Positions 1-18,282 of a stretch of DNA of 64,000 nt are shown piece by piece. The notes beneath the pieces were generated by a model. It was not told the origin of the DNA. It worked only from the letters and a program-made list of their open reading frames with translations, and did no database searches. Origin of the DNA: Planctomycetota bacterium (lineage in GTDB: Bacteria; Planctomycetota; UBA8742; UBA2392); assembly GCA_019636215.1 (NCBI GenBank), contig JAHBXZ010000003.1:186001-250000 (forward strand), written 5' to 3'. Position 1 is the stretch's first letter; each line of letters begins with the position of its first letter. Position numbers and translations under genes: made by a program.

Positions 1-1240
1 CCGGGTTGACGGTGTCGTTGGCGCCGATCACCAGCACAACATCGGTGTTCTTGAAGTCGTCGTTAATCTGGTCCATTTCAAACAGCTGCTCGTAGGGCAC
101 GTTGGCTTCGGCCAGCAGCACGTTCATGTGGCCGGGCATGCGGCCCGCCACGGGGTGAATCGCGTAACGTACGGCACAGCCGCGGGCTTCCAGGATCTTG
201 GCCAGTTCACGAATGGCGTGCTGGGCCTGCGCAACTGCCATGCCGTAGCCGGGCACCACCACCATGGTCTGGGCATCGGCCATCAGCATGGCTGCGGTTT
301 CGGCGTCGGCGGATTTGACATTCTTGTATTCACTCTTGCCGCCGCCCGCACCCGAATCGGTGGCGCCGAACCCGCCGAACATCACGTTTGCAAGGCTGCG
401 GTTCATGGCCTTGCACATGATCATGGTCAGGATCAGGCCTGCAGCACCAACCAGCGAACCGGACACAATCAGCACCTGGCTGTTCAGGGCAAAACCGGCC
501 ATAGCCGCGGCAATGCCCGAGTAACTGTTCAGCAGCGAGATCACCACCGGCATGTCGCCACCGCCAATCGGGATCACCAGCGTAATGCCCAGCACCAGTG
601 CGATCAGCGAAACCAGGACCAGCATGGTCGTGCCGCCGATGCCGCCGATGAACCATACGCCCATGACCGTGCAACCAATGGCAACCAGCCCCAGCACAAT
701 GTTGATCACATGCCGCGCCGGCAGCAGGATGGGCTTGCCGGACATCTTTTCACTCAGCTTGAGAAACGCGATCACGCTGCCAGTGAAGGTAACGCAGCCG
801 ATCAGAATCGAAAGCATCACCGCCAGGCCGTTGACGTCGCCGCTGGCGCCGCCGATCAGCGCCCGGTTCAGTGGCTGCGACGGGATACCGCCATACGCAT
901 AAGCTGCGATTGCCACCAGCGCTGATGCCAGGCCGCCCGACCCGTTGAACAGGGCCACCATTTCAGGCATTTGGGTCATCTGCACCTTGATGGATGCCAC
1001 GGCACCGATCAGGCCGCCGATCACCAGGCCGATCACGATCCACAACGGGTTGATCGTGCCCATCTGCACAAGCTGCGCGACCACTGCCAGCAGCATCGCC
1101 AGCGCGGCCAGCCGGTTGCCGTTCTTGGCCGTTTTGACGCGGCCCATCATCATGATGCCGAACATGAACATCAGGATGGAAAGGATGTAGCCGAAGTGGG
1201 CCAGCAGCTCATTCAGCTTGAGTGTCGCGATTGCAAGCAC
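1..1240 (-). CDS. pntB: NAD(P) transhydrogenase subunit beta (partial, C-terminus beyond window)
   Basis: Membrane and NADP(H)-binding subunit of the proton-translocating transhydrogenase, which couples the proton gradient to hydride transfer from NADH to NADP+. About 413 residues are inside the window. The first ~260 form a chain of hydrophobic helices. Domain III then begins, with the nucleotide motif GYGMAVAQAQ and the signature GANDTVNP close to the window edge. The family is about 460 residues long, so roughly 50 C-terminal residues are missing because the window ends, not because the gene is broken. The start is a GTG (1238-1240) preceded by a GGAG ribosome site. It is the last gene of the pntAA-pntAB-pntB operon, 15 bases after pntAB. 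Confidence 0.95.
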   Translation of the reverse strand, partial: MLAIATLKLNELLAHFGYILSILMFMFGIMMMGRVKTAKNGNRLAALAMLLAVVAQLVQMGTINPLWIVIGLVIGGLIGAVASIKVQMTQMPEMVALFNGSGGLASALVAIAAYAYGGIPSQPLNRALIGGASGDVNGLAVMLSILIGCVTFTGSVIAFLKLSEKMSGKPILLPARHVINIVLGLVAIGCTVMGVWFIGGIGGTTMLVLVSLIALVLGITLVIPIGGGDMPVVISLLNSYSGIAAAMAGFALNSQVLIVSGSLVGAAGLILTMIMCKAMNRSLANVMFGGFGATDSGAGGGKSEYKNVKSADAETAAMLMADAQTMVVVPGYGMAVAQAQHAIRELAKILEARGCAVRYAIHPVAGRMPGHMNVLLAEANVPYEQLFEMDQINDDFKNTDVVLVIGANDTVNP

Positions 1241-16927: not shown

Positions 16928-16957
16928 AGCGCCAATGTTCTTGCGAACATTGGCGCT
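16928..16957 (-). terminator. terminator after the selenoprotein gene
   Basis: Perfect 13-base-pair stem AGCGCCAATGTTC/GAACATTGGCGCT with a 4-base loop. On the minus strand it is followed by TTGCTTTGG. It lies 24 bases past the stop of the gene at 16981. Confidence 0.85.
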
Positions 16958-16980: not shown

Positions 16981-18060
16981 CTACTTGCCTTCGGGCGGCT
17001 TGGCCTCGGCCTTGAGCTGCTCGCGGTGGAAGTCGGCGTAGGTCTTGGCCGTGTCCGCCGCGGCGGTTCCGGGGTGTTCCTTGATCAGCTTGTCAAAGAA
17101 CGCAATGCACTTCTTGCGGAACTCGGCCATCACCTTGGCGTCATTTAGGTCGAGGTCGCCCGCGCCCCAATCCAGGTCGCGCATGCCGGTCAGCAAGGCG
17201 CGGCGCGCGGCGGCTTCTTTCTGGGCGTCCTTGTTGGCGGCCAGTTTCTTCAGCGCCTCGGGCGCATCGGCGGCGTCTTCGCAACCCTTGTAGGCTTCAG
17301 CCAGGCGCTTCAGGCACGCAGTCTGCGTGGCCACATCCTTCTGTACTTCGGCCATCTCAGCGCGCTGGTTCAGCGCACGAATGCTCTCTTCAATGCGATC
17401 TAGGATAAACTGGGCGTCAGCCTGCGCGGCCTCTGAGAAGTCGCCCTCCACCACTGCCGTTGCCAGCTTCACGGCCTCCGCGAACTGCTGTTTGCCAAAG
17501 GCCTTGGCGGCAGCTTCTACTTCCGAGGCAACCTTGGCGCGGCCAAGCCCCGGGTACTTCACCTTGGCGAGTTCCTTTTCAATGGCTTCGTCGTAGCCCT
17601 TGGTGCCCTTGTGGACGATCTTGCCATCCACGCCGATCACCCAAACCTGCGGAAGGCTGGGCGAGGGATAGTCGTCCCCCCACAGGCCGTCCAGCGCAAT
17701 CGGGTACTCAATCTTGTGTTTGGCGACCAGTTCTTCGATCTGGGCCAGCGGGTGGGCCTGGCAGTACAGCGTGAACACATGAAGGCCCTTGGGCCCGTAC
17801 TCCTTGTGGAGCTCGTTCATATGCGGCAACTGCCGCATGCAGGGGCCTCAGTTGATGCCCCAGCTCTTCAACAGGATGACGTCGCCTCTCAGGTCGCTGA
17901 ACTTCGGCACGGCGGGCGTGTTGATCCAGTTGCCGATCTCAAGATCCACGGCCTCGTCGCCGACCTTCAGCCCCGGTTCTTCCTGAACCTCGGGTTTTTC
18001 CTGGGCAGCCAGTGGCGCGCAAAGCAGTGCGGCCAGCAGCCCTAACAGCAGGGTCTTCAT
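16981..18060 (-). CDS. candidate selenoprotein: secreted thioredoxin-fold protein with UGPC redox motif
   Basis: Read through one in-frame TGA (17848-17850) this is a single 359-residue protein. It has a signal peptide (1-20, MKTLLLGLLAALLCAPLAAQ), a short linker, a TlpA/ResA-like thioredoxin domain (about 30-165) and a ~190-residue helical C-terminal region. The TGA is codon 71 and falls exactly on the first redox position: SWGIN-U-GPC-MRQLPHMNELHKEYG. The second cysteine is C74, and the cis-proline region SPSLPQVWVIGVDGKIVHKG follows at the normal distance. Frame and thioredoxin similarity continue on both sides with no indel. A perfect hairpin begins ten bases after the TGA (17821-17838). 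GGAGGAG precedes the ATG at 18058-18060. Thioredoxin-like selenoproteins with Sec at this position are known; no selA, selB, selC or selD lies in the window, so Sec insertion is inferred. The alternative is a nonsense mutation. Confidence 0.82.
17821..17838 (-). promoter_or_regulatory. putative bacterial SECIS hairpin
   Basis: In the mRNA the TGA is followed by nine bases, then a perfect stem ATGCGGC/GCCGCAT with loop AGTT. A G is in the second loop position and the loop begins 16 bases after the TGA. This fits the loose rules for bacterial SECIS elements (stem-loop just downstream of UGA, short apical loop with an early G). The stem is also coding (MRQLPH). Confidence 0.65.
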
Positions 18061-18179
18061 ATGAACTCCTCCGTATGCACCGGCCCTCACGGTAATACGG
18101 GCGACTGCCCGTTGCGAGAACGGAGTTCTTGGCGCCACGGCAGGGGCAGAGGGCTACTTTCGCCTGCAACCATCGTGCG

Positions 18180-18193: not shown

Positions 18194-18282
18194 GCCCGGG
18201 TGGCGGAACTGGCAGACGCAGAGGACTTAAAATTCTCTGGGGGGCAACCCCCGTGCGGGTTCAATCCCCGCCCCGGGCACCA
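18194..18282 (+). tRNA. tRNA-Leu (anticodon UAA), CCA encoded
   Basis: Acceptor stem GCCCGGG/CCCGGGC, anticodon stem GAGGA/TTCTC with loop CTTAAAA (anticodon TAA), a long class II variable arm (GGGGG...CCCCC) and T-arm GCGGGTTCAATCCCCGC. The 3' CCA is encoded at 18280-18282. Decodes UUA and UUG leucine codons. Confidence 0.96.

What the first reader, a model, noticed from the sequence alone, without database searches (positions are those of the whole stretch)
16981..18060. Candidate selenoprotein: in-frame TGA at the first position of a thioredoxin CxxC
On the minus strand a signal-peptide-bearing frame (from 18060) meets TGA at 17848-17850 and continues, in the same frame, as a thioredoxin-fold protein. 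The codon falls exactly where the first redox Cys belongs: WGIN-U-GPC. The cis-Pro segment lies at the normal distance downstream. Both halves are needed for one complete TlpA/ResA-like domain and there is no indel. This is what a Sec-for-Cys replacement looks like; annotation pipelines would call two unrelated genes. The ~190-residue helical C-terminal region is not part of known thioredoxin selenoproteins I can name, so this may be an undescribed family.
Basis: partly seen in the sequence, partly recalled or inferred. Interest (0 to 1): 0.92.

Follow-up and report, generated by a model that had tools for sequence, protein, structure and literature searches.

The report
Planctomycete UxxC thioredoxin-fold selenoprotein
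A gene that looks broken by a stop codon actually encodes a probably secreted thioredoxin-like enzyme whose stop codon is read as selenocysteine, and it belongs to a multi-copy family of such selenium enzymes in a group of Planctomycetota, so standard annotation would split or lose it.

Summary
The minus-strand frame 18060-16981 carries one TGA (17850-17848) at the first residue of a thioredoxin UxxC motif (WGIN-U-GPC). The genome has tRNA-Sec, selA, selB and selD, and its SelD also has an in-frame TGA. Among 95 distinct homologous sites, 63 have TGA at this codon (never TAA or TAG), 20 have Cys and 12 other residues. A SECIS hairpin (mostly 6-8 bp, loop AGUU or GUU) follows the UGA with compensatory changes: GUUG at +20..23 occurs in 49/63 Sec members and 0/32 non-Sec homologues. 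Listed TGA copies occur only in genomes with selA or tRNA-Sec. Ka/Ks between congeners is 0.09-0.18 on both sides of the TGA. Novelty is smaller than claimed: UxxC TlpA/redoxin-like selenoproteins are already tabulated, and the C-terminal helical region is shared with NCBIfam VPGUxxT type-1 selenoproteins. What appears new is this particular family, which has no NCBIfam model of its own and is expanded in Planctomycetota: four verified Sec paralogues in this genome, plus Cys and redox-dead copies. Most likely function (inferred): an extracytoplasmic thiol-disulfide reductase using Sec71 as nucleophile and Cys74 as resolving residue.

The parts
16981..18060 (-). Selenoprotein CDS, 359 aa with TGA read as Sec at residue 71; stop TAG
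18066..18072 (-). Shine-Dalgarno-like GGAGGAG before the ATG
   Evidence: sequence
18001..18060 (-). Signal-peptide-like N-terminus MKTLLLGLLAALLCAPLAAQ (residues 1-20); judged by eye, no predictor run
17611..17964 (-). Thioredoxin-fold (AhpC-TSA/Redoxin, ResA-like) domain, residues 33-150
17848..17850 (-). UGA codon decoded as selenocysteine (residue 71)
17839..17841 (-). Cys74, resolving residue of the UxxC motif
17821..17838 (-). SECIS hairpin AUGCGGC-AGUU-GCCGCAU, 7 bp; loop G 17 nt after the UGA
17650..17652 (-). cis-Pro loop proline (Pro137), nearly invariant
17044..17532 (-). C-terminal helical domain, residues 177-339, shared with VPGUxxT type-1 selenoproteins
   Evidence: helices in low-confidence model
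16928..16957 (-). Terminator-like hairpin, 13 bp, after the stop

Best explanation
The gene encodes a genuine selenoprotein. SelB and tRNA-Sec, recruited by the hairpin just after the UGA, insert selenocysteine at residue 71 (supported by comparative evidence; not shown biochemically). The product is probably exported (signal-like N-terminus). It folds into a ResA/TlpA-type thioredoxin domain in which Sec71 attacks a substrate disulfide, Cys74 resolves the mixed selenenylsulfide, and the oxidised protein is re-reduced by a membrane or periplasmic electron donor (inferred from the ResA/TlpA family). The helical C-terminal domain most likely binds partners or substrates (inferred). Paralogues diversified by duplication, with Sec swapped for Cys or the active site lost. 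The confidence given is for Sec decoding; the thiol-disulfide reductase role is about 0.6.
For: Full Sec machinery: tRNA-Sec 73 bits, anticodon TCA, selA 539 bits, selB 323 bits, selD 391 bits with its own in-frame TGA in GAG-U-GCK. Site: 62 UxxC + 1 UxxS, 17 CxxC + 3 CxxS, 12 others among 95 distinct sites; no TAA or TAG. SECIS: 25 distinct AGUU-class sequences, 96.7% of cells paired against 77.8% in shuffles, 20 double-change cells against 4.8, covariation 0.462 against 0.125 (0/500 shuffles reach it; slid versions at most 0.114). A second class with a GUU loop has 6 bp in a register shifted by one. GUUG loop in 49/63 Sec against 0/32 non-Sec. UGA+SECIS model: every hit below E 1e-3 is in a Sec-decoding genome, none in six genomes without selA. 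Co-occurrence: listed TGA homologues only in genomes with selA, the one apparent exception (G040, 80% complete) having tRNA-Sec at 74 bits. Purifying selection on both sides of the TGA: Ka/Ks 0.12 before, 0.09 and 0.18 after.
Against: No protein or 75Se data. Function beyond the thioredoxin-fold assignment is inferred; substrate and electron donor are unknown. The AlphaFold model, limited to a 4-sequence alignment, is poor (pLDDT 58) and was not used for a fold search. Several distant Sec homologues lack an obvious hairpin of the same shape.
Confidence: 0.96

Rival explanations
1. Pseudogene or sequencing error: the TGA is a nonsense mutation or base-call error in a Cys-type thioredoxin gene.
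For: TGC/TGT to TGA is one base; Cys homologues exist.
Against: The same codon is TGA at 63 distinct sites across many genera, always TGA; Ka/Ks well below 1 after the TGA; SECIS covariation.
Confidence: 0.01
2. Two separate genes: a short secreted peptide (ends at 17848) and a downstream protein starting at the internal ATG 17838.
For: This is what a stop-obeying ORF caller gives (285 aa from 17838).
Against: The thioredoxin domain spans the TGA; the second ORF would lack the N-terminal part of the fold and both redox residues; Cys paralogues are single uninterrupted frames; no Shine-Dalgarno-like sequence directly before 17838.
Confidence: 0.01
3. The UGA is decoded as another residue (Trp or Cys by a code change) or is read through at a low level.
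For: Any in-frame UGA could in principle be suppressed.
Against: Several family members end at TGA stops; the internal UGA is position-specific and tied to a SECIS and to selA/tRNA-Sec; Cys, not Trp, is the usual alternative residue at this site.
Confidence: 0.02
4. It is a selenoprotein but acts mainly as a peroxidase (AhpC/GPx-like) rather than as a disulfide reductase.
For: Pfam's best hits are AhpC-TSA and Redoxin, with a weak GSHPx hit; Sec often serves peroxidases.
Against: UxxC motif at the ResA/TlpA position; strongest NCBIfam match and most PDB matches are ResA-like; the PxxxTxxC peroxiredoxin signature is absent at this site.
Confidence: 0.2

Closest known systems
UxxC 'Thiol-disulfide isomerase-like protein' (cd02966) and 'Redoxin family protein' (PF08534) selenoproteins, PMC13188914 Table 1
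   Same: TlpA/ResA/redoxin-type thioredoxin fold with Sec at the first Cys of CxxC; predicted computationally in bacteria.
   Different: Only accessions are given, and they could not be fetched here, so whether those proteins carry the C-terminal helical domain or fall inside this family was not tested.
VPGUxxT family thioredoxin-like (seleno)protein type 1 (NF041382)
   Same: Two-part build: Sec-bearing thioredoxin-like domain plus helical C-terminus; C-terminus homologous (33/41 members match, best 6.8e-23); profile alignment puts the two Sec residues together. One same-family genome has a true member (517 bits, TGA).
   Different: PGU motif instead of WGxNU; the window protein scores 29.8 against a cut-off of 350, and its N-terminal domain is not matched.
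ResA-like WAxxUGC motif-containing protein (NF041054)
   Same: ResA-like thioredoxin domain with Sec at the active site.
   Different: UGC motif instead of UxxC; 32.9 bits against a cut-off of 300.
ResA/TlpA/CcmG thiol-disulfide oxidoreductases (e.g. ResA 1st9; PDB 28db redoxin domain protein)
   Same: Fold, WGxxCxxC-type site, cis-Pro.
   Different: Cys instead of Sec; the matches stop before the C-terminal helical domain.

Membership tests
Bacterial selenoprotein | In-frame UGA at a position where homologues have Cys or UGA | tested here: met
   63 TGA and 20 Cys of 95 distinct sites
Bacterial selenoprotein | SECIS hairpin just downstream of the UGA with a G in the apical loop | tested here: met
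Bacterial selenoprotein | selA, selB, selC (tRNA-Sec) and selD in the genome | tested here: met
Bacterial selenoprotein | Selenium present in the protein | not testable with these tools
   needs 75Se labelling or mass spectrometry
ResA/TlpA-type thiol-disulfide oxidoreductase | AhpC-TSA/Redoxin fold with CxxC (here UxxC) and cis-Pro | tested here: met
ResA/TlpA-type thiol-disulfide oxidoreductase | NCBIfam ResA model (NF002854) cut-off | tested here: not met
   60.1 bits against 170: a relative, not a ResA orthologue
ResA/TlpA-type thiol-disulfide oxidoreductase | Disulfide reductase activity | not testable with these tools
   needs an enzyme assay
VPGUxxT type 1 (NF041382) | Score above the curated cut-off, VPGU motif | tested here: not met
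   29.8 bits against 350, C-terminal half only
VPGUxxT type 1 (NF041382) | Helical C-terminal domain | tested here: met
WAxxUGC ResA-like (NF041054) | UGC motif and cut-off | tested here: not met
   UGPC motif; 32.9 bits against 300
Tabulated UxxC redoxin / thiol-disulfide isomerase-like selenoproteins | Direct similarity to the representative accessions | not tested
   accessions not held by the tools

The most novel reading that the evidence does not exclude
This is an unnamed two-domain selenoprotein family (Sec thioredoxin fold plus helical domain, related to VPGUxxT type 1) that expanded in one Planctomycetota family into about four or more Sec paralogues per genome, with Cys-swapped and redox-dead tandem partners, forming a selenium-dependent extracytoplasmic redox network.
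Probability: 0.5. Interest if true: 0.6.

Novelty: new member of a known kind. Interest (0 to 1): 0.5.

Why it matters
Stop-obeying annotation splits every Sec copy of this gene, so a multi-copy, conserved redox family of uncultured Planctomycetota is invisible or mis-annotated. It offers a natural series of Sec, Cys and inactive paralogues, often side by side, for asking what Sec adds to a thioredoxin-fold enzyme and how easily Sec and Cys interchange (at least 7 changes forced on the tree). It also ties a second family to the VPGUxxT selenoproteins through a shared helical domain.

Tried and rejected
Pseudogene or base-call error: rejected by 63 TGA sites and low Ka/Ks. Two genes: rejected because the domain spans the TGA. 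Hairpin as a by-product of the protein sequence: synonymous-codon shuffles give mean z -1.64 for Sec and -0.59 for Cys members, so the energy test alone is only moderate and many single sequences are not significant; the covariation and loop tests are the strong ones. Structure: low-confidence model; no fold search was run on it, and no second job, because loci from the genome search are not on that tool's allowed list. The search for related loci in genome contigs gave only one full-length relative. Papers: no text found that describes this planctomycete family; the selenoprotein list of two Porphyra planctomycetes is in a supplement that could not be read.

Full report
Observation. The minus-strand frame 18060-16981 translates to 359 residues with one TGA at codon 71 (17850-17848), in LKSWGIN-U-GPCMRQLPH, and ends at TAG. 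With the TGA read through, Pfam AhpC-TSA covers residues 33-150 and Redoxin 48-156, so the domain spans the TGA. The PDB matches are ResA and a redoxin domain protein. Codon-usage scanning of the whole 64 kb gave this as the one convincing TGA-interrupted frame.

Machinery. The genome has 3.99 Mb in 34 contigs and is 91% complete. A congener appears to be the Planctomycetota MAG H3_PLA7 from a partial-nitritation/anammox system (PMC7648391). The genome has tRNA-Sec (73 bits, TCA anticodon), selA, selB and selD. SelD itself has an in-frame TGA in GAG-U-GCK; a Sec form of SelD is a known selenoprotein (PMC13188914).

Homologues. A search of 60 relatives found homologues in 50. From the fetched loci, 95 distinct sites were aligned to codon 71: 62 UxxC, 1 UxxS, 17 CxxC, 3 CxxS, 12 others, and no TAA or TAG. 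The others are mostly a clade of tandem paralogues with WHxRDGTA in place of the motif. In this genome four Sec copies were verified (C23, C30, two on C12), plus a Cys copy (C9) and a redox-dead copy (C30). Other genomes of the same family have about the same number. A wider draw of 294 Planctomycetota genomes gave 57 with matches at 1e-20 or better, many with one TGA (TGA positions there were not checked one by one).

Co-occurrence. selA passes its cut-off in 45 of the 60 relatives. Genomes with listed TGA copies have selA; the exception, G040 (80% complete), has tRNA-Sec at 74 bits. Genomes without selA that have listed homologues show no in-frame TGA in them.

SECIS. Seventeen nucleotides separate the UGA from the G of a small apical loop, AGUU in this gene, closed by AUGCGGC/GCCGCAU. 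In 25 distinct AGUU-class sequences, 96.7% of pair cells are standard, with 20 double-change cells; the third pair occurs as CG, AU, GC and UA. Shuffled and slid controls fall far below. A second class has loop GUU and stem GAAGGC/GCCUUC, shifted by one. GUUG at +20..23 is in 49/63 Sec members and 0/32 non-Sec homologues. A covariance model of UGA plus hairpin has hits below E 1e-3 only in five Sec-decoding genomes and none in six genomes without selA. The model was trained on this family, so recovery of family members is partly by construction; the absence in controls is the informative part.

Selection and history. Between the window gene and its congener, Ka/Ks is 0.12 before the TGA, 0.09 in the rest of the thioredoxin domain and 0.18 in the C-terminal region. 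On a tree of 92 members with the site masked, the Sec label needs 12 changes, 7 of them forced by well-supported branches. Sec has therefore been exchanged repeatedly, mostly with Cys; direction was not tested.

What it is. NCBIfam gives ResA (60 bits, cut-off 170) and WAxxUGC ResA-like (33 of 300) for the N-terminal half, and VPGUxxT type 1 (30 of 350) for residues 177-339. Across the alignment, 33 of 41 members match VPGUxxT type 1, best 6.8e-23. A true VPGUxxT member from the same family of genomes aligns with the family profile at 99.5% probability, with the two Sec residues in register; most of that score seems to come from the C-terminal half, and a plain BLASTP between the two single proteins is not significant.

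Literature. A 2026 review lists 119 prokaryotic selenoprotein families or subfamilies, among them UxxC thiol-disulfide isomerase-like (cd02966), UxxC redoxin family and VPGU thioredoxin-like proteins (PMC13188914). Planctomycete selenoproteins have been reported (PMC4807772). None of the papers found describes this expanded family, but the library covers only open-licence papers.

Mechanism. Supported by comparison: Sec decoding of the UGA. From family knowledge: Sec71 nucleophile, Cys74 resolving, cis-Pro137 in the substrate loop. Inferred: export by the N-terminal hydrophobic segment, disulfide reductase role, partner binding by the helical domain. Confidence is about 0.96 that it is a selenoprotein and about 0.6 that it acts as a thiol-disulfide reductase.

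Noticed in passing
L016 1501-2427 (-), genome G000:C31:170525-171451: selD of this genome carries an in-frame TGA at GAG-U-GCK, i.e. a Sec-containing selenophosphate synthetase.
   Followed up: partly
L053 (G000:C30:83700-86700), L072, L073, L075, L076: Tandem clusters of a Sec copy, often a Cys copy, and a paralogue with both redox residues lost (WHxRDGTA), recurring across the family.
   Followed up: partly
L110 1489-2538 (+): A full VPGUxxT type-1 selenoprotein in same-family genome G011, with motif PGUATC, so a UxxC spacing as in the window protein.
   Followed up: partly
window 18194-18282 (+): tRNA-Leu (TAA) divergent from and just upstream of the gene; the same arrangement is kept in the congener (L048 3807-3896).
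   Followed up: partly
G000:C1:312820-312855 (-): Weak UGA-SECIS model hit (E 0.02) outside the known family genes; not examined.
   Followed up: no
L001 1643-1740 (+): ARAGORN reports an odd tRNA-like call with a four-base anticodon right after tRNA-Sec; probably spurious.
   Followed up: no
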